Below, one piece after another: positions 5,045 through 28,581 of a stretch of 64,000 nt of DNA. How positions within the stretch are numbered: the first letter of the stretch is position 1; each line of letters starts with the position of its first letter. The notes under the pieces are model-generated. The model was not told the DNA's origin, made no database searches, and saw only the letters and a list, made by a program, of their open reading frames with translations. Made by a program: the position numbers and the translations under genes. Source of the stretch: Glycomyces tenuis DSM 44171 (lineage in GTDB: Bacteria > Actinomycetota > Actinomycetes > Mycobacteriales > Micromonosporaceae); NCBI RefSeq assembly GCF_000427885.1, contig NZ_ATYW01000010.1, positions 1-64,000 of the forward strand. The letters are read 5' to 3'.

Positions 5045-5065
5045 GAAATTCGACGGGAGCTAGAT

Positions 5066-12660: not shown

Positions 12661-12682
12661 CGCCGAGCTCGGCTGATCGGGC

Positions 12683-13991: not shown

Positions 13992-14002
13992 CGAACGACT
14001 GC

Positions 14003-14028: not shown

Positions 14029-14058
14029 TGTCGTCCTCTCGTTGACGCTTCCTAATTG

Positions 14059-15486
14059 TCAGGGCCGGTTGGCGAGGGCCTCCTTGATCCCTTCGCCGTA
14101 GCCGGTGGGTGTGCCGTCCCAGTCGCTGATCAGGCCTGGCATGTCGCAGTTGGGGTACCAGCTCCAGGCCGTCCAGCCGATGCCGCGGGCATCGGCCCAG
14201 GCGATCAGGCCGTCACTCCAGTCGTGGTCGCAGCCGCCGTCACCGAACTCGCTGAAGACGGTGGGCACCTCGGCGGCGATCGGCGCGATGTCGCGATCCC
14301 AGCAGTCCTGGGTGTTGCATCCGGTCCCCTCGTAGACGTGGACACCGGCGATGAGGTTGCCTTCGGGGTCGGTCGGCATGAAGTCGAGGTAGCCGCCGCA
14401 GCCGTTGCCCCAGCCGTTGCAGGTGACCATCACCGGCTGGGTGGCGCCGGTGGAGCGGACGGCGTCGACCAGGTCCTGCATGCCGGCGGCCTCCCAGCCC
14501 TCGGAGGTGGTGCAGCCGTCCCTCCAGCACTCGTCGGAGATGTCGTGCGGCTCGTTGTACAGGTCGTAGACGACCGCCGGGTTGTCCTTGAACCGCTCGG
14601 CGACCGAGGCCCAGAAGTCGGGGGTGTTGTCGGCGTCGGCCATCAGCCGCTGACCGTCGGCCAGTTCGGTGCCGGGTGAGCTCCAATGCAGATCGAGCAC
14701 GGCGTACATGCCCGCCTCGGTGATCCGATCCACCCAGTCCTCGATGAAGGCCCGGTAGTGCTCGCCGGTCCACTCCGGCGTCGTCTCGCCGTAGCCGAGC
14801 CAGCACTGCTGGTTCATCGGGACGCGGATCGTGTTGGGCTCCCAGGAGGCCATGAGGTCGATCGCCGCGTCGTCGGAGGGCCCGTCGATGAAGCCCCAAC
14901 CGTGGATGCACGGCCATTCGGTGCCGGTGCGGTTGAAACCGTTGAGCACCACCGTCTCGCCTTCGGCGTTGACCAGCCGGTTGCCCTCGGCGTGGAGGGC
15001 GCTGGGCTTGCCCTCGGGAGGTTCGGGTGTCTCGGTCTCAGTGGGGGTCTCCGACGGCTCGCCGTCCTGCTCGCCGCAGACGACGCCGTTGACGGTGAAC
15101 TCCTCGGGGGCCTCGGTGCTGCCCGCGCCGACGAATCCGAACACCTGCCGGGTCTGGCCGGCGGCGATGGAACCGTTCCAGCCGACGTCGGTGCCGGAGA
15201 AGGCGCCGCCGGTCTGGTTCCAGTCGACGTTCCAGGCGCTGGAGACGGTGGTGTCGCCCGGGAACTCCCAGCCCAGGTCCCAGCCGTCGATCGCCTCACC
15301 GGCGGTGATGCTCACATTGGCCTGGAACCCCGAACCCCAGTCGCCGGTCACCTGGTAGTCGACCTCGCAGCCTTCATTCGCTGCGGCCTGCTGGGCGACG
15401 GCGAGGCCGAGTCCCGTCGTCATGATGGCCGCAGCGGCGACCGCGGTCAGTGCCAAGCCCTTTCGCTTGGCTCGGTTGATGTGCAT
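14059..15486 (-). CDS. Secreted GH5 cellulase with N-terminal CBM2
   Basis: A 475-residue secreted endoglucanase-type enzyme. A signal peptide (to about residue 36) is followed by a CBM2 cellulose-binding module (about 39-140, with conserved tryptophans in GWDLGWEFPG and WNVDWNQTGG), a Thr/Glu/Pro linker near 141-160, and a GH5 barrel with acid/base DLYNEPHD and nucleophile VFSEFGDGG. Several cysteine pairs suggest extracellular disulfides. The ATG at 15486 has GAAGGA upstream and begins a proper signal peptide; a longer in-frame start at 15525 gives no better leader. It converges on the ROK gene and is monocistronic. Confidence 0.9.
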   Translation of the reverse strand: MHINRAKRKGLALTAVAAAAIMTTGLGLAVAQQAAANEGCEVDYQVTGDWGSGFQANVSITAGEAIDGWDLGWEFPGDTTVSSAWNVDWNQTGGAFSGTDVGWNGSIAAGQTRQVFGFVGAGSTEAPEEFTVNGVVCGEQDGEPSETPTETETPEPPEGKPSALHAEGNRLVNAEGETVVLNGFNRTGTEWPCIHGWGFIDGPSDDAAIDLMASWEPNTIRVPMNQQCWLGYGETTPEWTGEHYRAFIEDWVDRITEAGMYAVLDLHWSSPGTELADGQRLMADADNTPDFWASVAERFKDNPAVVYDLYNEPHDISDECWRDGCTTSEGWEAAGMQDLVDAVRSTGATQPVMVTCNGWGNGCGGYLDFMPTDPEGNLIAGVHVYEGTGCNTQDCWDRDIAPIAAEVPTVFSEFGDGGCDHDWSDGLIAWADARGIGWTAWSWYPNCDMPGLISDWDGTPTGYGEGIKEALANRP

Positions 15487-15525
15487 GGCGTTGTCCTTCG
15501 GATCGATGTGAGGAATGCTCCACAA

Positions 15526-15545
15526 GAGCAGTAATAACGATGCTC
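15526..15545. promoter_or_regulatory. Inverted repeat upstream of cellulase gene
   Basis: GAGCA and TGCTC separated by ten AT-rich bases lie 40-60 bp before the cellulase start. TTGACA occurs on the minus strand at 15568-15563 but no clear -10 is correctly spaced. The whole stretch 15540-15570 is unusually AT-rich for this genome. It may be the cellulase control region. It is not the TGGGAGCGCTCCCA site of CebR. Confidence 0.3.
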
Positions 15546-15675
15546 ATCTATATTTGATATTTTGTCAACCAGCTTTAGAAAAGATTCGCGGATGCGTTCA
15601 CCGCACGCGAAGGAGCCGCCCGCCTCATCATGGTCCAGACCCTGCGCACACCTCCGAGCGGAACAGTCGGGCGGC

Positions 15676-16950
15676 TCAGGAATCCGCCGCCCCCACGCTC
15701 ACCGACTCGTGGGCCCGCTTTCGGCTCTCGATCCGCTTCGCCGCCGTCGTAGCGCCCAGCGCTCCCAGGACGAAGAGGACGCCCAGGACCAGCCAGCCGA
15801 TGTCCCCGGCGGTGAGGACGAACGCGCCGATCAGTATGGGTCCGACGGATTCCTGAGCCGACCGGCCCAGGTTGAACACCGTCAGGTAGGCGCTCCGCGA
15901 CCGCTCGGGCGCCAGCACATACGACAGTTCCCACGCGCCCACCGCCTGCCACAGTTCGCCGCACGTCAGGAGCAGGCAGGCGAGGAAGACCACCGCGATG
16001 GCCGCGACCGCGCCGTCGAGACGCCCGCCCGCGGCCAGGACCGCGCAGCAGCCCGCCAGCGACGCGGCCGCCCGCCACAGTGCGCTCCTGGCCCGCGACG
16101 CGCCGGTGACGCCCTTGGAGAACGGCACCTGCGCGAAGATCACGGTCACCGTGTTCACGAACAGCAGCACCGACACGAAGCCGTCGCTCACGTCGGGATC
16201 GGCGGCGACGTACAGCGGCAGCCCGACGGTCAGGAGTGTCAGGTGCATGGCGAGGACCCCGTTGGCTCCGGCCATCGCCAGGTACCGCCAATCGGCGACC
16301 GCCCGGAGCCCGGCGAAGGGGCGCCTCGCCTCCACCTCCGGCTCGGTCTCCGGAACGGTCACCAGACACAGGATGAGGCCTCCGGCGAGGAACGCCGCCC
16401 CGGTGCCGATCAGCAGGGATCTGTTGAGCCACAGGTGATCCGAGACGATCAGGGGAGCTGCCGCGAGTGCGCCGATCGAGAACCCGGCGTTGCGGAGCGA
16501 ACGGATCTGGGCCATCGTGCGCGTCCGCGTCCGGTCGTCCATGACCGACCCGACCAGGGCTTGCGTGATGGGACTGGCGGACTGCTGCGCGGCGGCCTGC
16601 GCCGACGCTACGAGGACCAGCCCCGCCACATCGCCGACGAACGCGAGCGCGGCGAAGCAGACGGCGCGCCAGACGAAGATGAGGACGAGCATGCGCTTGG
16701 CCCCGACCCAGTCGGCGATCGAGCCGATCGGCAGCGAGGCCGCAAAGCCGATCGCGGCGGCGATGCCGAGCCCGAAGCCGAGCTCGGACTCGGACAGGCC
16801 GACCGTCCTGGTGAAGAAGATCGCCGAACCGGCCAGGAACATGCCCGTGCCGAAGGAGCTGACGAGCATCGCGGCACACAGGATCGCCGCATCGCGGCCG
16901 GCCGGAATCCACTGCTTCAGGTCCAATCGGGGCAAACGCTCGCTCCTCAC
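15676..16950 (-). CDS. MFS exporter of the phosphonate cluster
   Basis: A 424-residue, 12-segment major facilitator protein, last gene of the phosphonate operon. The loop between segments 2 and 3 carries GSIADWVGAKRM, the usual MFS signature, and LRNAGFSIGALAAAP resembles drug-efflux motif C. Start GTG at 16950 overlaps the stop of the preceding ATP-grasp gene (GTGA), so it is translationally coupled and probably exports the cluster product or protects the producer. Substrate is inferred from position only. Confidence 0.8.
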   Translation of the reverse strand: MRSERLPRLDLKQWIPAGRDAAILCAAMLVSSFGTGMFLAGSAIFFTRTVGLSESELGFGLGIAAAIGFAASLPIGSIADWVGAKRMLVLIFVWRAVCFAALAFVGDVAGLVLVASAQAAAQQSASPITQALVGSVMDDRTRTRTMAQIRSLRNAGFSIGALAAAPLIVSDHLWLNRSLLIGTGAAFLAGGLILCLVTVPETEPEVEARRPFAGLRAVADWRYLAMAGANGVLAMHLTLLTVGLPLYVAADPDVSDGFVSVLLFVNTVTVIFAQVPFSKGVTGASRARSALWRAAASLAGCCAVLAAGGRLDGAVAAIAVVFLACLLLTCGELWQAVGAWELSYVLAPERSRSAYLTVFNLGRSAQESVGPILIGAFVLTAGDIGWLVLGVLFVLGALGATTAAKRIESRKRAHESVSVGAADS

Positions 16951-18212
16951 TGCTCGGTGGTGATCCGGATCAGCTCAGCCGCGGCCCTGGCGCGCCGGTC
17001 CGCCTGTCCCGGCGTCTCGCCGGTGGCGATCACGTGGCCCGAACGCTCCCAGGAGTTGGTGACGGTCCCGGTTTCCGAGCCGACTGCGACGGACACGTCG
17101 CCTTCGACGACGCCCGGCGCGAGGCGGGCGCGTTCGAGGCCGTCGACAGCGCTCACCCGTCCGGTCGGGGCGGTGAGGAACCGGATCGCGGCCGCCCCCT
17201 TGGGACTCGCCGGGACGGAGGGCCGCCCGCCCTCGAGGACGCGCAGGTACTCGCCTGTCAGATCGCAGGGGCGCGACAGGTCGATGAGCTGGACGATGGC
17301 GTCGCCCGGCAGCCTTCCGGCGCACTCGACCAGGTGCGGGCGCCCGCCGAAGCGTATCCATTCGGCGTGCACGACGCCTGTGCGGAACCCGGTGACCTCC
17401 ACCAACCGCCGGGTGGCCGCGATCAGCTCCTCGGCCGGTGCTTCGGGCAGGTCGGCCGGCACGACGTGACCGGCCTCGACCGGGCTCGGCCCATGGCGGA
17501 CCGACTTGGCCGTGACATTCGCGAACTCGAGCGTCCCGTCCGCCACCAGCGCCTCGACGCTGTACTCGGGCCCGTCCAGGCGCTGCTCCACCAGGTATTT
17601 GGGCGGCAGGGCATACCCGGCTCGCTGCCGCGGCTCGTCGGCGGCCGTCGTCGCGGCCCAGACCTCGGCGGCGTCGTCGGTGGCGCCGACAAGGCGGACG
17701 CCGACGCTGGCCTGGCGGTTGGCGGGCTTGACCACGCAGCGACGGCCGTACCGCTCGCGGAACCGCTCGATGCCGTCGGAGCCGCTCACGACCTCCCATT
17801 CGGGCTGGTCGATGCCGCCCGCCGCGGCCCGCTCGCGAAGGAGCGCCTTGTCCCGCAAGAGCCTCGCGGCGGGAATCCCGGCTCCCGGCACCCGCCACGC
17901 CTCGGCCAACGCGGCCGCGGCGACGACGCCGTACTCGAGCAGCGGGACCACCGCCCGGAGCCGGTCGGGCCGGGGCAGCAGGCCGCTCAACCGCTCGGCC
18001 CGCCGTTCGTCCTGTGTGGGCGCTTCGAGGATGCCGGCCAGGCAGGCCAGATGAGCGGTCCGCTCGCGACCGCGCCGGGCCCGGAGCGTGTCGGGCTCGT
18101 CGAGGACGAGGACGCTGCGCGCGGGTAGGAGCCGATCGATGCCGGTCAGGAACACGACGCTCAGCCCGACGGCGACGTGGGTGACGGCACTGAGGTCCGG
18201 TTGCTCTTCCAT
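16947..18212 (-). CDS. ATP-grasp amide/peptide ligase (third copy)
   Basis: A 421-residue ATP-grasp enzyme that likely activates a carboxylate with ATP and joins it to an amine. Characteristic parts are RRCVVKPANRQASVGVRLVG (nucleotide-binding lysine region), KYLVEQRLDGPEYSVEALV, and the metal-binding end HLVECAGRLPGDAIVQLID. The C-terminal tail resembles the biotin-carboxylase-like domain of L-amino acid ligases. It resembles the ligase at 20060-21259 more than the one at 18233-19381. I prefer the ATG at 18212 (GGAG seven bases upstream), though GTG at 18236 would overlap the preceding stop. It is likely to add one residue of a phosphonopeptide. Confidence 0.8.
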   Translation of the reverse strand: MEEQPDLSAVTHVAVGLSVVFLTGIDRLLPARSVLVLDEPDTLRARRGRERTAHLACLAGILEAPTQDERRAERLSGLLPRPDRLRAVVPLLEYGVVAAAALAEAWRVPGAGIPAARLLRDKALLRERAAAGGIDQPEWEVVSGSDGIERFRERYGRRCVVKPANRQASVGVRLVGATDDAAEVWAATTAADEPRQRAGYALPPKYLVEQRLDGPEYSVEALVADGTLEFANVTAKSVRHGPSPVEAGHVVPADLPEAPAEELIAATRRLVEVTGFRTGVVHAEWIRFGGRPHLVECAGRLPGDAIVQLIDLSRPCDLTGEYLRVLEGGRPSVPASPKGAAAIRFLTAPTGRVSAVDGLERARLAPGVVEGDVSVAVGSETGTVTNSWERSGHVIATGETPGQADRRARAAAELIRITTEQ

Positions 18213-18232
18213 GGTCTCGCTCCGATCCGGGT

Positions 18233-19381
18233 TCACCGCTCCGCCGCGCCGAGGCGCCGCAGCCGCTCCCAAGTGCGCTGCGCGGCCTCCTCGTCCGCGG
18301 CGGTGAAGTGGACCTCGCTGTAGGGGCGGTCGGCCGGGTCGACGAGCTCGGCGAACCCGGGGAGGTCACCGAGTCGTTCGCGCAGACCCGGAACGTCGGG
18401 TATCTGCGACCAGCCGAGGATCGGCGGCCGCAATCGCCCACCGGACGCGGCGGGCGTCTCGCCGAGCGCGGCCCGGACGAACTCGTCCCACAGGTCGATA
18501 CCACAGGCGCGCTGGATCATCCTGGCGATGCCGAGCCCGCCCGGTCGCATGGCGATCTCGCCGATCAGCGGCCCGTCGGCCGTCACGAAGACCTCCATGT
18601 GGGTCACGGCGTCTGCCAGGCCGAGGGCCGCGGCGGCCCGCCGATGCAGGTCGAGCAGTTCGCGAGCGACCGGTGAGGCCTGGTCGACGAGGTGGCCGCC
18701 GTAGACGCCGCCGGCGGCGTCGAGCGGCGCGACCGCGTAGCGCGAGACGAGGGCCTGATGGACCGCGCCGTCCCGAACGATGCCGTCGCAGTGGTACTCG
18801 CGCGCACCGGTGACCTGGTGTTCGGCGAGGACCGGTATGCCGCGAGCGGCGAGGCCGTCGAACGCGCCCTCCCTTCGGCGCCTGGCGAAGTCTTCGGCCG
18901 AGGCCACGCGGTGAGTGGTGGCCGCGAGGGCGCCGAAAACCGGTTTGAGCACGATCGGCCAGCCGACGAGCTCGGCGGACCGCGGCACGTCTTCGAGCGT
19001 CGCGGCCTGGACGTAGGGGGTGACGGGCAGCCCGGCCGCGCTCAGCCGATCTTTCATGACGCGCTTGTGGGTCAACGCCAGGGACTGGTCGAAGGTCGCT
19101 CCCGGGACGCCGAGGAGGGCGCGGACGAGTCCGGCTGCGGGAATGCTCTTCTCGGTGGAGGCGATGACGCGTTCCGGGCTCTCGTGCCCGGCGAGCGCGT
19201 AAGCGGCCTCTCTGACCTGCGTGAAGTCCTCGAAGCTGTCGACCAGCTCGGTGCGGCACCCTTCGTAGAGCCCGGCGTACTTCGCTCTGGTGACCACTTG
19301 GAGCCGCACGTCGGGGCGCGAGCGGAGCGCCGCTATGACGTCGGGTTTGTCGGAGTTCATCAGCAGCACGGTTCGGCTCAT
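18233..19381 (-). CDS. ATP-grasp ligase (second copy)
   Basis: A 382-residue ATP-grasp protein of a different subtype from its two neighbours. The N-terminal preATP-grasp part (TVLLMNSDKPDVIAALRSRP) leads to GWPIVLKPVFGALAATTHRV (ATP-binding lysine), VLAEHQVTGAREYHCDGIV and the metal-binding IGEIAMRPGGLGIARMIQ. This C-terminal pattern resembles enzymes that ligate amino acids or peptides. The ATG at 19381 has GGAG six bases upstream and follows the phosphoesterase stop by 19 bp, the largest gap in the operon. It probably forms one amide bond of the product; the substrate is unknown. Confidence 0.78.
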   Translation of the reverse strand: MSRTVLLMNSDKPDVIAALRSRPDVRLQVVTRAKYAGLYEGCRTELVDSFEDFTQVREAAYALAGHESPERVIASTEKSIPAAGLVRALLGVPGATFDQSLALTHKRVMKDRLSAAGLPVTPYVQAATLEDVPRSAELVGWPIVLKPVFGALAATTHRVASAEDFARRRREGAFDGLAARGIPVLAEHQVTGAREYHCDGIVRDGAVHQALVSRYAVAPLDAAGGVYGGHLVDQASPVARELLDLHRRAAAALGLADAVTHMEVFVTADGPLIGEIAMRPGGLGIARMIQRACGIDLWDEFVRAALGETPAASGGRLRPPILGWSQIPDVPGLRERLGDLPGFAELVDPADRPYSEVHFTAADEEAAQRTWERLRRLGAAER

Positions 19382-19400
19382 CGGTGGCTCCAATCGGCGT

Positions 19401-20057
19401 TCACGTGCGGCCCGGGCAGTGGTAGGTGACGGTGGCGGCGGCCTCGTCGACGACCGCCCACGCCGGTGAGGGCCCGCGCCCGGGCGCGGGCTCGGTGACC
19501 GAGCCGACGTTGACGACGTAGCGCGCCCCGGCTTCGAGCTCGAACGGTTCTCCGAAGCGGGGCACGGTCGTCCGCGGTCCGGACAGGTCGGGGCCGAGCC
19601 GGTGGACGGCGCTGCGGTGGTGGTGGCCGTGGACGAGGACCCTGCCGCTGAACGACGCTTCGGCGGGAGACCACATGCCCGGTTCGACCTCCTTCCACGG
19701 CAGGTGGTGTCCGTGGCAGTAGGTGGCGAAGCCGGTGCGGCGCTCGAGCGGCGCGTCCAGCAGCCGATGCGTCCATCGGGGAAGGTCCGAGTCGGGGACG
19801 AGCGAGACGATCCGCTCTTCCTGATTGCCCCGCAGCACGAACGCGCCGTCGACGAGTTCGGCGAGTTCGGGGTCGGCGTCGAAGACCTCGGTGGCGGCCC
19901 GGTATCTGAACGCGTCGACGCTGGACTTGCCGATCTTGCATTCGAAGAGGTCGCCGAGGCTGATGACGTGGTCGACGCCCTCGCGGCCCACCTGTTCCAT
20001 GACGTCGCGGAGCCGGGCGGCATCGCCATGGACATCGGTCACGACCGCGTAGCGCAT
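19401..20057 (-). CDS. Calcineurin-like metallophosphoesterase
   Basis: A 218-residue two-metal phosphoesterase of the YfcE-like type. Metal ligands are visible in TDVHGD (DxH), SLGDLFE (GD), FVLRGNQEE (GNx[DE]), TYCHGHH and VLVHGHHHRS. The third motif has Gln in place of the usual His of GNH[DE], which may alter catalysis. It lies two bases after the first ATP-grasp gene stop. In a biosynthetic operon it could remove a phosphate added by the HPr-kinase-like protein, either finishing the product or acting in self-protection. That role is inference. Confidence 0.75.
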   Translation of the reverse strand: MRYAVVTDVHGDAARLRDVMEQVGREGVDHVISLGDLFECKIGKSSVDAFRYRAATEVFDADPELAELVDGAFVLRGNQEERIVSLVPDSDLPRWTHRLLDAPLERRTGFATYCHGHHLPWKEVEPGMWSPAEASFSGRVLVHGHHHRSAVHRLGPDLSGPRTTVPRFGEPFELEAGARYVVNVGSVTEPAPGRGPSPAWAVVDEAAATVTYHCPGRT

Positions 20058-20059
20058 GC

Positions 20060-21259
20060 TCACCGCCCCGTCTCGATCACGACGCGGGCCGCGAGCGCGT
20101 CTGCTCGGGCGGCGGCGTCGGACGCGTCCTCGCCGGTCACGAGGACGTACCCTGCCCGGTCCTCGGACTGGCGCACGGGCCGGACGGTCTCGCCGACCTC
20201 GACGTTCAGTCGGACGACGTCGTCCGGGTGAGCGGGTTCGGGAACCTCGATACGGCGGACGGTCCCCGGCTCGGGCGCGAGGAAGCGGATGGCGGCCCCG
20301 GCCGCGGGCGGCGGCACCTCGGCGGGCGGCTCGGCCAAGCCGAGTGCGCAGGCCACCGTCAGAGCCGGGAGGTCGAGCCCGTAGCAGCGGCGGACGAGCT
20401 CCCGGATCTTGTCTCCGCCGATTCGATTGTGCGACTCGATGATTCGCGGCCCGTCCGCGGTGAGCCGCAGTTCGGTGTGGGCGGGGCCCTCTCGGAGCCC
20501 GACGAGGTCGAGGAAGTCGCGGACCAGCGTCTCGGCCCGTTCGCGCTCGGCCGGCTCCAGTGCGGCCGGCATCGTGTGGCCGGCTTCGACGAACGAGGGC
20601 CACACCGCCTTGCCGGTCACGGCGACGACGAGGTGCCGCCCCGCGTGGGTGAAGGTCTCGACGCTGACCTCCGGCCCGTCGAGGTACTGCTCGGCGAGCG
20701 GGTCGGCCCCGCCGAGTCGGACGAACCGGTTCCACGCGCGCTCGGCGTCGTCGGCTCCGTCGACGCGGACCACTGCCCGGCTCGCGGATCCGTTCGCGGG
20801 CTTGAGGACGGCCGGTCCGCCGATGGTGCGGCAGAACGCCGCCAGCGCCGCCGCGTCGCCGGGCGCGCTCACCGCGGTGGGGCTGAGCCCGGCGCCGTTC
20901 AGCAGCTCCCGCATCCGCCGTTTGTCCTTGAGCAGCACCACTGTGGCGAGGGGGTTGCCCCGCAGCGCGAGCTGTTCGGCGGCTTCCGCGGCCGGGACCA
21001 GGCCGGGCTCGGTCAGCGACAGGACCCGGTCGAACGGGTCCTCCGCGTGCGCGGCGGCCAGTCGGCGGTGCAGGTCCTCGGGGTCGGCGAGGTCGACCGG
21101 GATCGTCTCGTCGGCCTCCTTCGCGCACTCGGGGACCGGCGCGGCCGCGTCGTGCACGAGCGCTGTCCGGACCCCGAGGTCGCGGGCGGCGCGCACCAGC
21201 GCGGGCGTGCCCGCGACGACGGCGACCCGCGGGGCACCCGAGGGCGCTGCTGCTGTCAC
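20060..21259 (-). CDS. ATP-grasp amide/peptide ligase (first copy)
   Basis: A 399-residue ATP-grasp enzyme likely to form an amide bond with ATP hydrolysis. It contains GGPAVLKPANGSASRAVVRV (ATP-binding lysine), PLAEQYLDGPEVSVETFTH and RIIESHNRIGGDKIRELVRR (metal-binding Glu/Asn), followed by an L-amino acid ligase-like C-terminal domain (GAAIRFLAPEPGTV). The same C-terminal pattern occurs in the gene at 16947, so the two are probably paralogues. The GTG start at 21259 overlaps the glutaredoxin-like stop (GTGA). It is a candidate for linking an amino acid to the phosphono amine. Confidence 0.8.
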   Translation of the reverse strand: MTAAAPSGAPRVAVVAGTPALVRAARDLGVRTALVHDAAAPVPECAKEADETIPVDLADPEDLHRRLAAAHAEDPFDRVLSLTEPGLVPAAEAAEQLALRGNPLATVVLLKDKRRMRELLNGAGLSPTAVSAPGDAAALAAFCRTIGGPAVLKPANGSASRAVVRVDGADDAERAWNRFVRLGGADPLAEQYLDGPEVSVETFTHAGRHLVVAVTGKAVWPSFVEAGHTMPAALEPAERERAETLVRDFLDLVGLREGPAHTELRLTADGPRIIESHNRIGGDKIRELVRRCYGLDLPALTVACALGLAEPPAEVPPPAAGAAIRFLAPEPGTVRRIEVPEPAHPDDVVRLNVEVGETVRPVRQSEDRAGYVLVTGEDASDAAARADALAARVVIETGR

Positions 21260-21525
21260 TCCGGGTCCTCCGGCGCGACCGATCGCCCGTAGCGCTCATT
21301 GAGGTAGGCGATGATCTCGGCGTTCTGCTTGAGCTTGCCGGGGATCACCGTGTCGCCGTCGACGAGCGCGGGGATGTACTTGGAGCCGGTGACCCGGATC
21401 AGTTCGTGCCGCTCCTCGCGGATCTTGGGCACGTTGACGTTCATGTACGAGATCTGGAGTTCGGTGAGCAGCTCCCGGACGGGTCGGCAGTCCGGGCACG
21501 GCTCGCGTTGGAACAGGACGAGCAT
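21256..21525 (-). CDS. Glutaredoxin-like thioredoxin-fold protein
   Basis: An 89-residue protein with a CPDC dithiol near its N-terminus (FQREPCPDCRPVRELL), the cis-proline segment KYIPALVDGD and a C-terminal helix, as in glutaredoxins and GST N-terminal domains. It could reduce a thiol partner or an enzyme of the pathway. Its ATG overlaps the aminotransferase stop (TGATG) and its own stop overlaps the following ATP-grasp start, so it is firmly part of the operon. A specific role in phosphonate synthesis is not known. Confidence 0.78.
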   Translation of the reverse strand: MLVLFQREPCPDCRPVRELLTELQISYMNVNVPKIREERHELIRVTGSKYIPALVDGDTVIPGKLKQNAEIIAYLNERYGRSVAPEDPE

Positions 21526-22670
21526 CAGTTTCCCTCCTCGTGGACGGTGCGGATGATCGCGCCGGCGGCCGTTCCCGGCTCCATGTCGTGACCGCAGCCG
21601 AGCAACGCGAGCTCCAGGGCGCCGAAGACCGCGCACAGGTCGAGCGCGTCGACCGCCCCGACGTGCCCGATCCGGATGAGCCTGCCTTTGAGATGCGCTT
21701 GGCCGCCTGTGACGGTGACGCCCCAGTCGGCCGACATGGATTTCAGCAGGCGCCCCGAGTCGATCCCTTCGGGCGCCAGCGCGGCGGTGATGACGTTGCT
21801 GCGCCGATGCGGCGGTTCGATGAAGGTGCGGAATCCGAGGTCGAGCAGGGCCTGTTCGGCGGCCCTGCCGAGCAGCGCGTGCCTTGCCCGGAAGGCCTCG
21901 ACGCCCTCCTCGCGGAGCATCTCCAGTGATTCGCGGAGCGCCAGCATGAGCGAGACCGCCGGTGAGGACGAGGACATCGGGTAGAACTTCCGCAGGCGCT
22001 CGAACGACCAGTAGTAGCTCGGCCCGCCGCCGCGTTCGACGGCGGCCCAGGCCTTGTCGGAGACGGCGATGAACGCCAGGCCGGGCGGCAGCATGAAGCC
22101 CTTGTGGGATGCGGCGAGCACCACGTCGAGGCCCCATTCGTCCATGTCGAGCGGGTGCACCAGCAGGCCGCTGATCGCGTCGACCACGACGACGACGTCG
22201 GTGCCGCGGAACAGCTCCCCGATCGCCCGCACGTCGTTGAGCGCCCCGGTGGAGGTCTCGGAGTAGACGACGAGCACGCCGCGGGCACTCGGGTGCTCCC
22301 GGTGTGCCGCGGCGACGGCCTCGGCAGGGACGCTGGTCCCCCAGGGGCTCTCGACGAGGTGAGCGGTGAGCCCGTATGCCGATGCCATGTCGGCGAACCG
22401 CTCGCCGAAGTACCCGTTGGAGACGACCAGGACCTCGTCGCCCGGCGCGAAGCAGTTCGCGACGGCGGCCTCCATGGCGCCGGTCCCCGAGGAGGCGATG
22501 CTGTAGACCGGTGACGCGGTGCCGAACAGCGGCGGCAGCGCGGAGCCCACTTCGTGGTTGAGCTGCTCCATTTCGGTCGACCGGTGGTGGACGATCTCCT
22601 GGGCTCCGGCCAGGAGCAGCCGCTGCGGGACCTCGGTCGGTCCGGGTGTGGCCAATCGGAGTCGCTTCAC
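21525..22670 (-). CDS. Class V aminotransferase, likely phosphonate amine-forming
   Basis: A 381-residue PLP enzyme of the alanine-glyoxylate / 2-aminoethylphosphonate (PhnW-like) transaminase group. PLP contacts include SSGTGAMEAAV, the aspartate in VVVDAISGLL (D164) and the Schiff-base lysine in AASHKGFMLPPG (K190). In a cluster with PEP mutase and phosphonopyruvate decarboxylase it most simply converts phosphonoacetaldehyde to 2-aminoethylphosphonate. It could instead aminate a larger 2-oxo phosphonate made by the aldolase. The GTG start at 22670 has GGAGG upstream and overlaps the preceding stop. Family assignment is firm; the substrate is inferred. Confidence 0.85.
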   Translation of the reverse strand: MKRLRLATPGPTEVPQRLLLAGAQEIVHHRSTEMEQLNHEVGSALPPLFGTASPVYSIASSGTGAMEAAVANCFAPGDEVLVVSNGYFGERFADMASAYGLTAHLVESPWGTSVPAEAVAAAHREHPSARGVLVVYSETSTGALNDVRAIGELFRGTDVVVVVDAISGLLVHPLDMDEWGLDVVLAASHKGFMLPPGLAFIAVSDKAWAAVERGGGPSYYWSFERLRKFYPMSSSSPAVSLMLALRESLEMLREEGVEAFRARHALLGRAAEQALLDLGFRTFIEPPHRRSNVITAALAPEGIDSGRLLKSMSADWGVTVTGGQAHLKGRLIRIGHVGAVDALDLCAVFGALELALLGCGHDMEPGTAAGAIIRTVHEEGN

Positions 22671-23104
22671 CGTTCCTCCTCGTCGGTGGCCGGCCGCGGC
22701 GGGTCGATGAGGACCCGGCGGGTGGCCGGTTTCAGGTCGAAGTCGAACAGGACGACCCGATGGGTCGCCGACATGCCCATTTCGCCACCGACCCAGGGCA
22801 CCAGGAGACTGGTGCCGAGCAGCGAGCATTTGAGGTGCGCGAAACCGTTCGGGTCGCCGGTGGTCAGCTCGTGCAGGTATCGTCCGCCGCCAGGGCTGGT
22901 CGGGGCGAGGGCGTCGAGCGCGGCGAGCAGGTCCTGAGCGGCGCCGGGCTCGTAGCGCATCACCGTGAGCCCGACGGTGCTGCCGCGCGCGAACACCCCC
23001 GCGAGGCCGTCGCCGGCGCGGTGCTCGGCGAGGACGCGGGCGATCTCGTCGGTCAGGTCGTAATGCGAGTTCAGTCCGGTGCTGGACACGGTCAGTTCGA
23101 TCAT
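22667..23104 (-). CDS. YjbQ / UPF0047-family protein
   Basis: A 145-residue protein with the hallmark of the YjbQ family: TVGLTVMRYEPGAAQDLL, the YLHELTTGDPNGFAHLKCSL block with conserved His and Asn, and the final LFDFDLKPATRRVLI. Members have weak thiamine-phosphate synthase activity in vitro but their natural role is unclear. Finding one translationally coupled between an HPr-kinase-like gene and an aminotransferase is unusual. The usual GN[SD]xAH block is slightly changed here (GDPNGFAHLK). It may bind a phosphorylated small molecule of the pathway, which is inference. Confidence 0.8.
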   Translation of the reverse strand: MIELTVSSTGLNSHYDLTDEIARVLAEHRAGDGLAGVFARGSTVGLTVMRYEPGAAQDLLAALDALAPTSPGGGRYLHELTTGDPNGFAHLKCSLLGTSLLVPWVGGEMGMSATHRVVLFDFDLKPATRRVLIDPPRPATDEEER

Positions 23105-24195
23105 CGTGCCGCCACCCCTTCGAGTTCGGCGATCACGTCGGCGAAATCGCCGGAGGTCAGGTCCCCCGGCCCGGACACGTCCCAGGCCGGGACGCGCGCG
23201 AGCGCGGCGACCGCGGCCGAGCGGTCGGACTCGACGCGGGCCCGCTCGTCGTCGAGGTAGGCGTGCCAGCCGGCCCCGTCGAAGGCCGATTCGAGGTTGG
23301 CGTGCAGCACTTCGGCCTCGGCGTCCACGCTCGCCCGCCGCGCCGTGACCTCGGTCCGCTCGCCGGGTCCGATCGCCGGGTGCAGCACGGCCGCGACCGG
23401 CGCGAGGGCCCCCGCCGGCGCGTCCGGGAAGCGGCGGCGGAAGCGGCTCGGGTCGACCGCGAACTTCCCGTACGGGGAGAACTCGTGGTCCGGCGGCGGC
23501 CGGTGGTCGGCCGCGATGCCGGCGATCTCGGGGAGCCCGGGGTACTTCGCGACCGTGGCGTAGCCCAGGTGCGGGTAGTCCGGGGTCCCGGCGGCCGCGA
23601 CCGCGCCGTCGGCCCGGAGCCGCAGCACCGTCTTGTCGCCGCTGAGCACGCGGTAGCCGTAGTGCTCGACCAGTTCGAGCAGGAGTGTGCTCTTGCCGGC
23701 GCCCTTCACGCCGGTGACCAGGACGGCTCGGCCGTCGCGCCAGGCGGCGCTGGCGTGCAGGACGGCGGCGCCGGTGTTCTCCTGGTGTTTGAGGACGAGG
23801 TCGCGCAGGAGGTGGACCAGGTCCATGCGCGCGTCGCGACCGGGCGCGATCTCGATCCGGGACGAGGCCCGGTCGAAGACGAACCTGGTGCCGGTTTTGA
23901 CGCACTGGACGTACTGGCGGCCGTGCGACTCCGCCCGCCGAGCCGGGATGCTGAAGAAGTCGTTGGCGCTCTTGCGGACGTAGATCTCCTCGGTGGCCTC
24001 GTCCGGGGGCGGGAGGTGCCGCTCGTCGGCTTCGGCGGCGATCCGCAGCGTCGCTATCGGGCCGCCGTGGTCGTGCTCGGACCGCGCGGTGTAGTGGGTG
24101 CCGACGAACTCCAGGACGTCCTGGATCTCGGCTCCCGTCTCGACCTCGAGGTCGAGACGGGAGCCGAGGAACGCGAGGTGCAGCAGCCGGGTCAT
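23101..24195 (-). CDS. HPr-kinase-like P-loop kinase
   Basis: A 364-residue protein of the HprK-related family. The C-terminal half carries the Walker A loop GVKGAGKSTLL (residues 162-172), preceded by AAVLHASAAW and followed by YRVLSGDKTVLRL, as in HPr kinases and related serine or small-molecule kinases. The N-terminal 140 residues are not recognised. There is no HPr or PTS gene in the window, so it probably phosphorylates a pathway intermediate or carrier rather than HPr. A precedent is the phosphorylation of a hydroxyl before elimination in APPA-type phosphonate pathways, where a different kinase family is used. Its start overlaps the PEP mutase stop (ATGA). Confidence 0.75.
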   Translation of the reverse strand: MTRLLHLAFLGSRLDLEVETGAEIQDVLEFVGTHYTARSEHDHGGPIATLRIAAEADERHLPPPDEATEEIYVRKSANDFFSIPARRAESHGRQYVQCVKTGTRFVFDRASSRIEIAPGRDARMDLVHLLRDLVLKHQENTGAAVLHASAAWRDGRAVLVTGVKGAGKSTLLLELVEHYGYRVLSGDKTVLRLRADGAVAAAGTPDYPHLGYATVAKYPGLPEIAGIAADHRPPPDHEFSPYGKFAVDPSRFRRRFPDAPAGALAPVAAVLHPAIGPGERTEVTARRASVDAEAEVLHANLESAFDGAGWHAYLDDERARVESDRSAAVAALARVPAWDVSGPGDLTSGDFADVIAELEGVAAR

Positions 24196-25100
24196 TGACC
24201 GGCCTCGGTGAGCTCGCGGCCCAGGTCCTCGTAGCGATCCTGTTGCTGGAGCATCTGCGGCACCCGTTGGAGGTCGAAGACCTCCTTGAGCGGGGCCAGT
24301 TCGCTCTCGACGTGGCAGCTGGTGCCCTCCCGGTGGATGCGGGTCAGCACCTCTCGCATGGCCCGGATCGAGCTGCGCAGCGCCTGGTTGGCGTAGATCG
24401 CCATCGCGAAGCCGCGCTGCTCGAGCTCGTCGGCGGTGACGTTGTTGTAGGTGGTCGGCACGACGATCACCGGCAGGTCGCCTTCGTAGGCCTCCCGGAA
24501 GGCGTACACCTCGCCGGGGTCGGTCTTCTTGGAGTGGATGAGGATCGCGTCGGCGCCGGCGCGCTCGTAAGCGTCGGCGCGGCGCAGCGCTTCGTCCATC
24601 CCGAGCCCGGAGATGAGCGCTTCGAGGCGGGCCACGACGACCAGTTCCTTCCGCACTTCGGTGGCCGCCCTGATCTTCCCGGCGAAGTCGTCGATGGGGG
24701 CCAGGTCCTGGTTGCCCTCGACGAAGCTGTTCAGCTTCGGGAACTGCTTGTCCTCGATGCACACGCCCGCGATGCCGCGGGCCTCGTAGCTGCGCACCAT
24801 GTGGATGACGTTGTTGACATTGCCGAAGCCCGAGTCGCAGTCGGCGAGCACCGGGATGTCGACGGAGGCGGCCATTGCGGCGGCCGCGTCCAGGCATTCG
24901 GACATGGTGAGGAGGTTGGCGTCGGGTACGCCGGCGGCGGCGGAGATCTCCAGTCCGCTCGACCAGACGACGTCGAAGCCGACCTCTTCGGCGAGGCGGG
25001 CGCCGAGCGGGGTGTGCGCGCCGATCGCGCGGACGAGTCGGGGCCCGCGGAGGGCGTCGAGGAGTCTTCCGGCTGGGGTGTTCGCGGCGGGTCGGGTCAT
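24192..25100 (-). CDS. pepM: Phosphoenolpyruvate mutase
   Basis: Rearranges phosphoenolpyruvate to phosphonopyruvate, creating the C-P bond and committing carbon to phosphonate synthesis. The 302-residue protein has the diagnostic motif EDKQFPKLNS (residues 116-125, EDKx5NS), which separates PEP mutases from isocitrate-lyase relatives, and metal-binding LADCDSGFGN (about 85-94). VWSSGLEISAAAGVPD and DAILIHSKKTDP also fit the family. It overlaps both neighbours by four bases. Because the equilibrium strongly favours PEP, a coupled decarboxylase is needed, and both halves of one lie just upstream in the operon. Confidence 0.95.
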   Translation of the reverse strand: MTRPAANTPAGRLLDALRGPRLVRAIGAHTPLGARLAEEVGFDVVWSSGLEISAAAGVPDANLLTMSECLDAAAAMAASVDIPVLADCDSGFGNVNNVIHMVRSYEARGIAGVCIEDKQFPKLNSFVEGNQDLAPIDDFAGKIRAATEVRKELVVVARLEALISGLGMDEALRRADAYERAGADAILIHSKKTDPGEVYAFREAYEGDLPVIVVPTTYNNVTADELEQRGFAMAIYANQALRSSIRAMREVLTRIHREGTSCHVESELAPLKEVFDLQRVPQMLQQQDRYEDLGRELTEAGQ

Positions 25101-26104
25101 GACGAGGCCTCTTCCATGAGTTCACGGCACACGTGCTCGACCTCGTCGTCGAGTACCTTGTGCGGCTGCTTCGCGCCGATCCGGCGCCCGACCTCCCAGG
25201 GGTCGAGCCCGAAGCGGGCGCTGATCTTGTCGATGCGGCTCTGAAAGTAGAAATGGTGGTCGTTGACCCCCGCGGCGATCTCCGCCCGGCGCACCGTCAT
25301 GGGACGTGGTAGGACCTGCTCTGCCACGTATTCCGAGGCCTTGCACACCATTGGCAGGTCGGAGTGGGTCTGGTGCTCCGGCATGGCCTGGAGGAAGGCG
25401 GCGGCCTGCTCGGTGGCGAGGTTGCCCGCTCCGCGGGCCATCGCGCCGAGCGAGGCGTCGAGCCAGGTCGCTCCGGCGTCGAGGGCGGCGAGCGCGTTGG
25501 TGACGGCGAGGCCGAGGTTGTTGTGGGCGTGGATGCCCACGGGGATCGGGAGCCGCTCGGTGATCAGGCGCATCCGCTTCGACACGTCGTCGGGTGTGAG
25601 GGCGCCGAAGGAGTCCGCGATGTAGAACACGTCGGGCGTCTCGTCCCGGACCTGTTCGACGATCTCGGCGAGTTGGTCGATCGTGGTGTAGCTGACGGCC
25701 ATCAGGTTGACGCCGGCCTTGAGGCCGAGCCGGTGCACGGCGCGGACGTAGTCGCCGACGGCGGCGATGTTCCACGGGTAGGAGGCGATGCGGACCAGAG
25801 CGATCGGGCTGTCGGCGAGGTCGGCGAGCGCGTCGATGGGGCACACCGACGGGACGACCATGACGGCAAGTTCGGCGTGCCGGGTCTCGGGTAGGGCCGA
25901 GAGATACTCAGGCGAGCAGTCCGCCGAGGGCCCGGCGGTGTCGCTGGCCCGGCTTCCGGAGCCTCCGCGGTAGCCGACTTCGATGACGTCGATCTTCGCG
26001 GCGTCGAGCGTGCCGACGATGGTGCGGACGTCGGTCGGGGTGAACTGCCAGTCGTTCTGGTTGCCCCCGTCGCGGAGGGTGCAATCCAGCAGTGTGGGTT
26101 TCAT
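25097..26104 (-). CDS. DRE-TIM metallolyase, 4-hydroxy-2-oxovalerate aldolase-like
   Basis: A 335-residue TIM-barrel aldolase or Claisen-type enzyme. The N-terminal LLDCTLRDGGNQND holds the divalent-metal aspartate and catalytic Arg (DRE-like), and GIHAHNNLGLAVTNALAALD supplies the metal-binding histidines. It is closest in pattern to 4-hydroxy-2-oxovalerate aldolases rather than isopropylmalate synthases. In rhizocticin biosynthesis an aldolase joins phosphonoacetaldehyde to oxaloacetate, so this enzyme may make 4-hydroxy-2-oxo-5-phosphonopentanoate from pyruvate or oxaloacetate. Alternatively it condenses phosphonopyruvate with another acyl donor. It overlaps the decarboxylase beta gene and the PEP mutase gene. 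Confidence 0.82.
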   Translation of the reverse strand: MKPTLLDCTLRDGGNQNDWQFTPTDVRTIVGTLDAAKIDVIEVGYRGGSGSRASDTAGPSADCSPEYLSALPETRHAELAVMVVPSVCPIDALADLADSPIALVRIASYPWNIAAVGDYVRAVHRLGLKAGVNLMAVSYTTIDQLAEIVEQVRDETPDVFYIADSFGALTPDDVSKRMRLITERLPIPVGIHAHNNLGLAVTNALAALDAGATWLDASLGAMARGAGNLATEQAAAFLQAMPEHQTHSDLPMVCKASEYVAEQVLPRPMTVRRAEIAAGVNDHHFYFQSRIDKISARFGLDPWEVGRRIGAKQPHKVLDDEVEHVCRELMEEASS

Positions 26105-26670
26105 CCGGTCGGGGTCTCCTCGTTCTTACGTGCCAGTTCGGTCTGGAAGCGGGCGACGAGCTGCTGCGGGGAGGGCTCCACGCGGCGGCCGGCCCGGTGG
26201 CTGCGCGGCGCGCAGGGGATGTGGAGCAGGGTGGGCGCGCGGGTGAGTTCGACGGCTGCGATCCGGTCGGCGGTCTCGATTCGGTGTGCGGCGGCGTACC
26301 CGCAGGCGAGCGCCATGGCGACGGGGTCGCCGAGGGCGGCGGTGCGCTGCCCGCCGGTGCTCTCGTGAGCGCCGTTGTCGAGAACAGCGTGGACGAGGTC
26401 TGGGCGCTGCTCGCCGATCATCGGCAGGCAGCCGGGGTTCATCGCGAAGGAGCCGTCTCCGTCGAGAACGAGGACGCGCCGTCCGGGTTCGGCGACGGCG
26501 ATGCCGAGTCCGAGGGGGGCGGCGATGCCCATGGTGCCGACCAGGTAGAGGTGTTGCGGGCGGTCTTCGAGGTTGTACAGGTCGCGTGTGATGTAGCCGC
26601 AGGTGCTGACGACGAGAGCGGAACGGTCGCGGTCGAGCAGCGCGCGTATGGCGTCGCGGATGTCGAGCAT
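26101..26670 (-). CDS. ppd: Phosphonopyruvate decarboxylase, C-terminal (TPP-binding) subunit
   Basis: A 189-residue half of a thiamine-diphosphate decarboxylase. The cofactor motif runs from LDGDGSFAMNPG to VLDNGAHESTGGQ, and the latter block is characteristic of phosphonopyruvate and sulfopyruvate decarboxylases. With the upstream subunit it would convert phosphonopyruvate to phosphonoacetaldehyde and CO2, pulling the mutase reaction forward. The ATG follows the alpha-subunit stop immediately (TGAATG). Most phosphonate clusters carry one fused chain of about 370 residues; here the enzyme is split into two genes. Sulfopyruvate decarboxylase is excluded mainly by the adjacent PEP mutase. Confidence 0.9.
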   Translation of the reverse strand: MLDIRDAIRALLDRDRSALVVSTCGYITRDLYNLEDRPQHLYLVGTMGIAAPLGLGIAVAEPGRRVLVLDGDGSFAMNPGCLPMIGEQRPDLVHAVLDNGAHESTGGQRTAALGDPVAMALACGYAAAHRIETADRIAAVELTRAPTLLHIPCAPRSHRAGRRVEPSPQQLVARFQTELARKNEETPTG

Positions 26671-27192
26671 TCAGATCCCGTCGGGTACCAGCAGGACCGA
26701 GGTCCTGGCGTGAACGTCGTGGTCGTCGAGGAACCGCTGGGTGCATTCGGCCGGGCGGTCGCGGTCGAGGACGGTCCAGGCGAGGCCGAAGACGTCGAGG
26801 AGCCTGGTCAGCTCGCGGCCGATCACGTCGTGCTCGACCGCGTCGTTGTCGTCGTGTCCGCGCCAGCTCACGATGAGCGGCAGGTGGACGTCGTAGATGA
26901 GGTTGAACGAGGTCACGACGTTCAGTGAGTAGCCGAGGCCGGAGTTCTGCATGAGGACGACGGGCCGGGCTCCGGCGACGGCCAGTCCGGAGGCGACTCC
27001 GAGCGCACTGTCCTCGCGGGGCGCCGGAAGGTACCGTGCGGGGCACTCGGGGTCCTCGAGCAATCGGAACAGGCCTTTAAGGAGCGAGCACGGCACACCG
27101 GTGAAGTGGGTGGTTCCATTAGCCAGTAGGGTGTCCATGATTATTTCGGCGGCATTCATCTTGAGTTCCGGCGATAGCGCTGGAGGCGGCAT
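26671..27192 (-). CDS. ppd: Phosphonopyruvate decarboxylase, N-terminal (pyrimidine) subunit
   Basis: A 173-residue subunit that contributes the catalytic glutamate activating thiamine diphosphate (PREDSALGVASG, E60) and the block VVLMQNSGLGYSLNVVTSF, which is typical of phosphonopyruvate decarboxylases. I chose the ATG at 27192 because GAAAGGG lies seven bases upstream; the longer frame to 27366 runs through the presumed operator region. It is the first gene of the phosphonate operon and is followed without a gap by its partner subunit. An internal ATG (residue 12) is a possible alternative start. Confidence 0.9.
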   Translation of the reverse strand: MPPPALSPELKMNAAEIIMDTLLANGTTHFTGVPCSLLKGLFRLLEDPECPARYLPAPREDSALGVASGLAVAGARPVVLMQNSGLGYSLNVVTSFNLIYDVHLPLIVSWRGHDDNDAVEHDVIGRELTRLLDVFGLAWTVLDRDRPAECTQRFLDDHDVHARTSVLLVPDGI

Positions 27193-27316
27193 CGGTTCCC
27201 TTTCTCGCCTGGGATGGCGTGCCTCGGCTTTCGCCGACGCGGTTCCGGTTCCTGGCGTAAACGTTTGAGAACGTACCGGTGAAACCGTGCGGTGAACAAG
27301 AGATGAAGACCTGGTT

Positions 27317-27351
27317 GTCGGGATTCCGACCAACTTTGTCGGAATCACGAC
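27317..27351. promoter_or_regulatory. Tandem operator-like repeats upstream of phosphonate operon
   Basis: GTCGGGATTCCGAC (27317-27330) and GTCGGAATCACGAC (27338-27351) are two near-palindromic 14-mers whose centres are exactly 21 bp (two helical turns) apart, about 125-160 bp before the first phosphonate gene. This geometry suits cooperative binding of a dimeric regulator. The neighbouring LuxR-type protein is a candidate. Confidence 0.5.
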
Positions 27352-27614
27352 ATGATGGGATGCCATGTGCCGGAACGGCTTCGACTCTCCTTAGCGGTCC
27401 AAGCTGCACTTTCCGCTGTGTGACGAGGCTCGATTCCCTTCCTCGGCAACCTGTCCCTCAGCGGTCACCGCAGCCTCTGGAGCCACAGCCCATATCGAGC
27501 CCCTGCACCGCGAGATGCCCGACGGCATCGGCCCGCTCGCCGATCCGAAGGCCCCCGACAGGCCGCCGACGTGTGGTTCGATGCCCACCAGCGGACTCCG
27601 GAGTCCGTTTCGTC

Positions 27615-27632
27615 AAGTATGTACTCATACTT
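27615..27632. promoter_or_regulatory. Perfect inverted repeat AAGTATG-TACT-CATACTT
   Basis: Seven-base arms around a four-base centre in an AT-rich patch, about 215 bp before the LuxR gene. A related half-site, ATACTTG, follows near 27658. It looks like an operator, but no cognate regulator is evident. Confidence 0.4.
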
Positions 27633-27769
27633 CACAGTGACCAGTTGAATAGCCAGGAATACTTGTCCTCAACCGGCCACCCACAAGCAAGAACACGCCC
27701 ACAAGACGACTTTCAACATGCACTGCAACAGAATATGGGACACCGCTCAAGCCAAATCGCAAGCTAAGA

Positions 27770-27799
27770 TTGACGACGGTGTGAACACCTCCATACGAT
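27770..27799 (+). promoter_or_regulatory. Promoter for LuxR-type regulator
   Basis: TTGACG (27770-27775), an 18-base spacer and TACGAT (27794-27799) lie about 50 bp before the regulator start. The spacer contains the small inverted repeat GGTGT-GA-ACACC (27778-27789), a possible operator. Confidence 0.5.
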
Positions 27800-27847
27800 C
27801 CCGATCTTCTCTGAGAAACGACGTCGACTTTGGAAAGTTGTTGAGGC

Positions 27848-28560: not shown

Positions 28561-28579
28561 GAACCGAGGAGCTCGGTTC
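28561..28579 (-). terminator. Hairpin after small secreted protein gene
   Basis: An eight-base perfect stem (GAACCGAG / CTCGGTTC) with a three-base loop directly after the stop codon of the minus-strand gene at 28582. Confidence 0.5.
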
Positions 28580-28581
28580 CG

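What the first reader, a model, noticed from the sequence alone, without database searches (positions are those of the whole stretch)
15676..27192. Thirteen-gene phosphonate (probably phosphonopeptide) biosynthetic operon
The sequence shows a PEP mutase with EDKQFPKLNS, both halves of a phosphonopyruvate decarboxylase, a class V aminotransferase, an aldolase, three ATP-grasp ligases and an exporter, nearly all overlapping by one to four bases. Established chemistry gives PEP to phosphonopyruvate to phosphonoacetaldehyde; amination and amide-bond formation follow by inference. I know of no characterised cluster combining these with an HPr-kinase-like protein, a YjbQ protein, a glutaredoxin-like protein and a metallophosphoesterase. 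The product is likely a new phosphonate.
Basis: partly seen in the sequence, partly recalled or inferred. Interest (0 to 1): 0.93.

Follow-up and report, generated by a model that had tools for sequence, protein, structure and literature searches.

The report
Rhizocticin-type phosphonopeptide operon in Glycomyces
This 13-gene operon, in a bacterium that is likely a Glycomyces, has the same ten core genes in the same order as a Bacillus cluster of the type that makes the antifungal rhizocticins, so it is predicted to make a related phosphonate peptide that would block threonine synthesis in competitors; its set of peptide-joining enzymes differs from the Bacillus one.

Summary
In detail: 13 co-directional genes (27192-15676, minus strand), 10 of 12 junctions overlapping by 1-4 bases. 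The claim that no characterised cluster combines them is wrong. Its decarboxylase halves match RhiE/RhiF of the rhizocticin pathway (PDB 9iz3) far better than any other solved structure; one ligase best matches 4wd3, the RizA-type ligase. A genome scan with the HPr-kinase-like protein gave 28 loci; 20 carry pepM, and 19 of those keep ppdA-ppdB-aldolase-pepM-hprK-yjbQ-aminotransferase-grx-mpe-ligase in one order, in Streptomyces, Nocardiopsis, Bacillus, Paenibacillus, Virgibacillus and Enterococcus. The likely product is a peptide of APPA, the warhead of rhizocticins and plumbemycins. New here: the likely host genus (Glycomyces; the only carrier among 22 genomes), the ligase set, and a comparative result: the threonine-synthase-like RhiB sits in only 4 of the 20 loci, so the APPA double bond is more likely made by the conserved kinase/YjbQ pair. 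That step is inferred and testable. An informative variant of a known kind, not a new class.

The parts
26671..27192 (-). ppdA: phosphonopyruvate decarboxylase alpha half, RhiE type
   Evidence: best solved structure 9iz3_A (RhiE), E 5.7e-45, next best 5.5e-10; TPP_enzyme_N
26101..26670 (-). ppdB: phosphonopyruvate decarboxylase beta half, RhiF type
   Evidence: best solved structure 9iz3_B (RhiF), E 7.4e-51, next best 1.9e-09; TPP_enzyme_C
25097..26104 (-). HMGL-family aldolase, RhiG type by position and similarity
   Evidence: HMGL-like; TLRDGGN motif in 21 of 21 loci incl. window; best solved relatives are 4-hydroxy-2-oxovalerate aldolases
24192..25100 (-). pepM: PEP mutase
   Evidence: PEP_mutase 180.6 bits over cut-off; NCBIfam TIGR02320 306.5 bits, just under its cut-off 319.55; EDK.FPK[LM]NS in 21 of 21
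23101..24195 (-). HprK/PEPCK-fold protein, predicted kinase
22667..23104 (-). divergent YjbQ/UPF0047 protein, candidate phosphate-eliminating enzyme
   Evidence: UPF0047 75.5 bits; tight subfamily; present in all 20 pepM-bearing loci
21525..22670 (-). class V aminotransferase
   Evidence: Aminotran_5; best NCBIfam BhcA 245.6 bits, under cut-off 650; SHKG in 21 of 21
21256..21525 (-). glutaredoxin-like protein with CPxC, step not assigned
   Evidence: Glutaredoxin E 8e-11; CP.C in 21 of 21
20060..21259 (-). LIG1: ATP-grasp L-amino-acid-ligase-like protein
   Evidence: ATPgrasp_N, ATP-grasp_4, LAL_C2; in all 14 actinobacterial pepM-bearing loci, in pieces in L009
19401..20063 (-). metallophosphoesterase, step not assigned
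   Evidence: Metallophos_2 E 4e-10 (scanned from the later start 20057); metal-site pattern in 19 of 21
18233..19381 (-). LIG2: RizA-type ATP-grasp ligase
   Evidence: best solved structure 4wd3, E 3.4e-47 (searched from the later start 19360); T81 and K83 of RizA kept in 20 of 20 copies
16947..18236 (-). LIG3: ATP-grasp L-amino-acid-ligase-like protein
   Evidence: LAL_C2, ATP-grasp_4; otherwise only in the 2 Nocardiopsis loci
15676..16950 (-). MFS protein, predicted exporter
   Evidence: MFS_1 E 1.5e-19

Best explanation
[quoted passage not shown] Predicted route: PepM turns PEP into phosphonopyruvate; PpdAB (RhiEF type) decarboxylates it to phosphonoacetaldehyde; the aldolase adds a three-carbon unit from oxaloacetate to give 2-keto-4-hydroxy-5-phosphonopentanoate (RhiG chemistry, recalled). 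Inferred here: the HprK/PEPCK-fold kinase phosphorylates the 4-hydroxyl, the YjbQ-family protein eliminates that phosphate (the C3 hydrogen is acidic next to the ketone) and so makes the 3,4-double bond, and the aminotransferase then installs the amine. LIG2 (RizA type) would couple an amino acid onto APPA, LIG1 and LIG3 would extend the peptide or supply variants, and the MFS protein would export it. Grx and the phosphoesterase belong to the conserved core but their steps are not assigned.
For: RhiEF is the best solved match of both decarboxylase halves by 35 and 41 orders of magnitude. Ten genes in one order in 19 of 20 pepM-bearing loci of two phyla, among them L023, whose ppdA is nearly identical to RhiE 9iz3 (346 bits over 167 residues) and whose last ligase is nearly identical to 4wd3 (866 bits over 408). 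LIG2 best matches 4wd3 and keeps RizA T81 and K83 in 20 of 20 copies. Motifs of PepM, aldolase, Grx, aminotransferase and P-loop in 21 of 21. antiSMASH labels of rhizocticin in two species that hold relatives of the window's HprK or YjbQ proteins. Aspartate kinase and homoserine dehydrogenase genes beside the cluster in 2 of 20 loci fit a threonine-branch target. Kinase fold.
Against: No chemistry of this operon was seen. RhiB and RhiA, part of the Bacillus locus, are absent and RhiC has no orthologue. PepM, YjbQ, HprK and aminotransferase score below their NCBIfam cut-offs. RizA position 376 is not kept outside Bacillus as D, and positions 156 and 158 vary. My strict patterns failed in part: YjbQ 16 of 21, ppdA RED motif 16 of 21, phosphoesterase 19 of 21. 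L026 lacks LIG2 and has its phosphoesterase elsewhere. HprK-like genes also occur without pepM, in 8 of 28 loci. Roles of HprK, YjbQ, Grx and the phosphoesterase are untested.
Confidence: 0.82

Rival explanations
1. The product is plumbemycin itself (Ala-Asp-APPA or Ala-Asn-APPA, structures recalled), so the compound is already known and only its genes are new.
For: Plumbemycin is an actinobacterial (Streptomyces plumbeus) APPA peptide (PMC13302981, passages); the actinobacterial loci lack the arginine-ligase residue D376.
Against: The window has three ligases, while the Streptomyces loci have LIG1 and LIG2 only; no plumbemycin gene cluster was seen to compare with.
Confidence: 0.15
2. The double bond is made by a PLP enzyme of the threonine-synthase type (RhiB or a housekeeping copy) from a phosphorylated amino-hydroxy intermediate, and YjbQ does something else.
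For: Threonine synthase chemistry eliminates a gamma-phosphate (established chemistry, recalled); RhiB lies within the operon between pepM and hprK in the two Paenibacillus loci.
Against: RhiB is absent from 16 of 20 pepM-bearing loci within the 18-21 kb fetched and from the window, in a search that found both housekeeping copies as controls.
Confidence: 0.2
3. The warhead is not APPA but the hydroxylated or another C5 phosphonate, because Grx, phosphoesterase or YjbQ do something different in actinobacteria.
For: The steps of four core proteins are unproven; the actinobacterial proteins are only 29-57% identical to the Firmicute ones in eight core genes.
Against: All of the core is retained in order, including every gene of unknown step.
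Confidence: 0.12
4. Aminoethylphosphonate for a phosphonolipid or phosphonoglycan.
For: The aminotransferase also hits PhnW-type models; Glycomyces phosphonoglycans are in print (title in a reference list, PMC8931226).
Against: Three ligases, aldolase and the rhi core; among 19 neighbouring ORFs scanned, 12 had a family and none was a glycosyl-, cytidylyl- or lipid transferase.
Confidence: 0.02
5. A sulfonate pathway with sulfopyruvate decarboxylase.
For: The top NCBIfam match of ppdA is sulfopyruvate decarboxylase alpha.
Against: That match is below its cut-off; RhiEF is far better; PepM carries EDKQFPKLNS.
Confidence: 0.02

Closest known systems
Rhizocticin (rhi) cluster of Bacillus subtilis ATCC 6633 (Borisova 2010, recalled, not held), seen here through the near-identical proteins of L023, B. 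tequilensis
   Same: ppdA, ppdB, aldolase, pepM, hprK, yjbQ, aminotransferase, grx, mpe and a RizA-type ligase, same order; 33-57% identity to L023 in eight core proteins
   Different: no LysR (RhiA), no threonine-synthase-like RhiB, no RhiC orthologue; LIG1 inside the core and LIG3 added; only a 25% MFS match
Plumbemycin (Streptomyces plumbeus)
   Same: an actinobacterial APPA peptide (PMC13302981, passages), the expected product class
   Different: no gene cluster seen to compare with; the product here is unknown
RizA, L-amino acid ligase (4wd3; name recalled, supported by residue numbers)
   Same: LIG2's closest solved relative (E 3.4e-47); T81, K83, S84 kept
   Different: D376 kept only in the two Bacillus copies (E in L006 and L022, other residues elsewhere; the alignment is gapped there), so arginine is an unlikely partner by inference
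Phosphonoalamide cluster (PMC11867202)
   Same: phosphonopeptide made by ATP-grasp ligases (abstract)
   Different: there phosphonopyruvate is transaminated directly; here a decarboxylase and an aldolase follow PepM
HPr kinase/phosphorylase and ATP-dependent PEP carboxykinase
   Same: fold of the HprK-like protein
   Different: GDK instead of the paired aspartates after the P-loop (motif of the known enzymes recalled); only 10-17% identity

Membership tests
Rhizocticin-type (APPA) phosphonopeptide cluster | PEP mutase with EDK.FPK.NS | tested here: met
   21 of 21 loci incl. window; Pfam over cut-off, NCBIfam just under
Rhizocticin-type (APPA) phosphonopeptide cluster | split RhiEF-type decarboxylase | tested here: met
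   9iz3 best
Rhizocticin-type (APPA) phosphonopeptide cluster | RhiG-type aldolase next to pepM | tested here: met
   41% identical to the L023 aldolase, TLRDGGN in 21 of 21; activity not testable
Rhizocticin-type (APPA) phosphonopeptide cluster | hprK-yjbQ-aminotransferase-grx-mpe run in this order | tested here: met
   in the window LIG1 lies between grx and mpe
Rhizocticin-type (APPA) phosphonopeptide cluster | RizA-type ligase | tested here: met
Rhizocticin-type (APPA) phosphonopeptide cluster | RhiA, RhiB and RhiC as in Bacillus | tested here: not met
   but RhiB is present in only 4 of 20 pepM-bearing loci, so I treat these three as accessory
Rhizocticin-type (APPA) phosphonopeptide cluster | product contains APPA | not testable with these tools
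   needs NMR and mass spectrometry
Rhizocticins proper (Arg-APPA) | RizA D376 kept in the ligase | tested here: not met
   (gapped alignment there); that D376 serves arginine is an inference
HPr kinase/phosphorylase | P-loop kinase fold | tested here: met
HPr kinase/phosphorylase | phosphorylates HPr | not testable with these tools
   a small-molecule substrate is my inference
YjbQ (secondary thiamine-phosphate synthase) | TIGR00149 score over cut-off | tested here: not met
   55.4 bits against 67.75; Pfam UPF0047 is met (75.5 against 27): a divergent UPF0047 subfamily

The most novel reading that the evidence does not exclude
The conserved HprK/PEPCK-fold kinase and the YjbQ-family protein form a two-protein dehydration module: the kinase phosphorylates the 4-hydroxyl of the keto-hydroxy-phosphonate and the YjbQ protein expels the phosphate to make the Z-alkene of APPA. 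This gives a UPF0047 protein a defined biosynthetic step, and makes the Glycomyces operon the source of a new three-ligase APPA peptide.
Probability: 0.35. Interest if true: 0.75.

Novelty: new variant of a known kind. Interest (0 to 1): 0.5.

Why it matters
It turns an apparently unique operon into a member of a widespread, syntenic family running from Enterococcus to a likely Glycomyces, so warhead, target and self-protection can be predicted and tested. Comparing 20 loci separates the invariant core from the parts that swap (ligases, transporter, threonine-synthase-like RhiB), which bears on how the double bond of APPA is formed: the conserved kinase/YjbQ pair is left as the best candidate. 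The actinobacterial ligase sets point to APPA peptides with other uptake, and so other target ranges, than rhizocticins.

Tried and rejected
Sulfonate route: rejected by the RhiEF matches and PepM. Phosphonolipid or glycan: no such transferase among the 12 of 19 neighbouring ORFs that had a family. A special resistance threonine synthase: the own genome has two over the cut-off, but 22 of 22 genus genomes (own included) have two, and neither lies on the operon's contig. Another PepM in congeners: 20 of 22 genus genomes (own included) match PepM at E <= 0.001, but of seven congener copies inspected four read LEDQVNPKRCGH (methylisocitrate-lyase-like, recalled reading) and three (L059-L061) EDKEGLKRNS. 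HprK without pepM: in the seven loci examined (L016, L017, L018, L020, L024, L028, L029; L030 is cut at a contig end and was left out) none of the other window proteins had a convincing match, only two 35-residue ppdB hits at E 0.008-0.016; what else these loci share was not tested. RNA families: none at gathering score in 12000-30000. Promoter and terminator scans were near chance (1 against 0.4, 3 against 3.6). Shared flanks between window and other loci: one 30% hit. The PepM tree has long branches and open forks and mixes three congener PepMs in, so I drew no history from it; the trees are quick ones. A coarse linkage check: 23 of 64 YjbQ entries share the longest-contig length with one of 67 HprK entries (left out: the own YjbQ entry, two without contig and three distant ones, and the last two HprK entries). 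Literature: nine searches showed, in their listings and the passages I opened, no description of this operon, of a plumbemycin gene cluster or of a YjbQ role in phosphonate synthesis; PMC11867202 does say that rhizocticin and plumbemycin pathways encode ATP-grasp ligases. The library lacks most subscription papers, including Borisova 2010. The DSMZ genome-mining paper PMC12723261 (outline and passages) does not contain the words rhizocticin, YjbQ or aldolase.
Full report
OBSERVATION. The 13 genes are there, on the minus strand, 27192 to 15676. With the starts I prefer (mpe 20063, LIG2 19381), 10 of 12 junctions overlap by 1-4 bases, ppdA and ppdB abut, and mpe and LIG2 are 19 bases apart. The flanks look unrelated: cellulase, GH43, arabinofuranosidase-domain, LacI and sugar-ABC genes on one side; a LuxR-type HTH, an FAD/NAD oxidoreductase and a heavy-metal ATPase on the other.

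HOST. The genome has 5.7 Mb in 44 contigs. The nearest named relatives of its threonine synthase are Glycomyces (87-93%), so the host is likely a Glycomyces. The operon is patchy: the HprK protein finds a full match in 1 of 22 genus genomes (its own) and in 1 of 200 family genomes. The family search had 22 genomes with some match at E <= 0.001; the best besides the own is 33% identical, and its 4.0-kb locus (L040) holds no other operon gene.

WHAT IT IS. A protein search with the HprK-like protein gave 69 relatives; the window protein aligned with 23 of them (A1) was used to scan one genome per species, giving 28 loci. Mapping the window proteins on these shows 20 loci with pepM and 8 without. 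Of the 20, 19 carry ppdA, ppdB, aldolase, pepM, hprK, yjbQ, aminotransferase, grx, mpe and LIG2 in this order; L026 lacks LIG2 and has its mpe elsewhere. The 20 are 12 Streptomyces, 2 Nocardiopsis, 2 Bacillus, 2 Paenibacillus, 1 Virgibacillus and 1 Enterococcus. Over eight core proteins the window is 57-81% identical to the actinobacterial and 29-57% to the Firmicute loci (L019 left out).

The Bacillus tequilensis locus L023 identifies the family. Its ppdA matches PDB 9iz3 chain A with 346 bits over 167 residues, and its last ligase matches 4wd3 with 866 bits over 408. 9IZ3 is RhiEF of the rhizocticin pathway (PMC12141560, passages). The residue letters and numbers published for RizA (PMC9321006, passages) fall on the L023 ligase with no offset; that 4wd3 is RizA is recalled. 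L023 reads LysR, threonine-synthase-like, ligase, MFS, ppdA, ppdB, aldolase, pepM, hprK, yjbQ, aminotransferase, grx, mpe, ligase (names; LysR and MFS by eye). Counted from A, the decarboxylase halves are E and F, as in RhiEF, and the aldolase is G, as in RhiG (RhiG recalled from the Borisova 2010 abstract; paper not held). Independent labels agree: antiSMASH called a rhizocticin cluster in Rathayibacter toxicus (PMC7143919, passages) and in Bacillus cabrialesii (PMC11769180, passages); the first appears among relatives of the window's HprK and YjbQ proteins, the second of its YjbQ protein. The window's own ppdA and ppdB pick RhiE and RhiF by 35 and 41 orders of magnitude over the next solved structure, and its LIG2 picks 4wd3.

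A COMPARATIVE TEST. The threonine-synthase-like RhiB could be the enzyme that makes the alkene, or a resistant target. It is present in 4 of 20 pepM-bearing loci (2 Bacillus, 2 Paenibacillus) and absent from the other 16 within the 18-21 kb fetched, among them all 14 actinobacterial ones, and from the window; the same search found both housekeeping copies of the host as controls. It is therefore not a required part of the cluster, though a copy elsewhere in those genomes is not excluded. The host's two threonine synthases occur in 22 of 22 genus genomes, so no resistance copy stands out. S. natalensis (L007) and S. lilacinus (L009), 2 of the 20, carry aspartate kinase, permease and homoserine dehydrogenase genes just upstream of their clusters, which fits a threonine-branch target.

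LIGASES. LIG2 keeps RizA T81 and K83 in 20 of 20 copies and S84 in 18 of 20; positions 156 and 158 vary; D376 is kept in the two Bacillus copies, is E in L006 and L022 and something else in the other 16, in a gapped stretch. The RizA paper places all studied positions but D376 in the C-terminal-substrate pocket. I read this as the same C-terminal partner (APPA) with another N-terminal amino acid than arginine. LIG1 is in all 14 actinobacterial loci (in pieces in L009), with weak hits (26-29%) in L025 and L027; LIG3 is otherwise only in the 2 Nocardiopsis loci. A quick tree keeps LIG1, LIG2 and LIG3 apart. A three-ligase operon may make a longer peptide or a mixture.

VERDICT. Ordinary in class, useful in detail: an actinobacterial variant of the rhizocticin cluster in a likely new host genus. 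The literature searches cover an open-licence library only, so print outside it is not excluded.

Noticed in passing
L007:2309-6200; L009:1610-5855: Aspartate kinase, amino-acid permease and homoserine dehydrogenase genes directly upstream of the rhi-type cluster in S. natalensis and S. lilacinus (the last in two pieces in L009): likely self-protection in the threonine branch.
   Followed up: partly
L016, L017, L018, L020, L024, L028, L029, L030: HprK/PEPCK-fold genes without pepM within the fetched DNA (Nocardiopsis, Streptomyces, Paenibacillus, two metagenome bins); L029 and L030 lie on contigs under 7 kb.
   Followed up: partly
L044:350-2286: A distant HprK-like gene (28%) beside a class V aminotransferase (29%) in another genome of the host's family; the locus is only 3.8 kb.
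   Followed up: no
L026:11076-13938 (Paenibacillus roseus): Extra genes between hprK and the mpe/yjbQ part, by eye an amidohydrolase-like and a Rieske-like protein; the first had no NCBIfam match at 1e-5.
   Followed up: no
L059, L060, L061: Three congeners carry a different PepM-like protein (EDKEGLKRNS, 36-37% identical), probably other phosphonate pathways.
   Followed up: no
window 1995-15525: A run of plant cell-wall degradation genes (arabinofuranosidase-domain, GH43, two GH5 proteins, ricin-type lectin domains, LacI, sugar ABC permeases) next to the operon's 3' end.
   Followed up: no
window 27848-28105 (+): An 85-residue LuxR-type HTH protein divergent from ppdA, possibly a regulator.
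   Followed up: no
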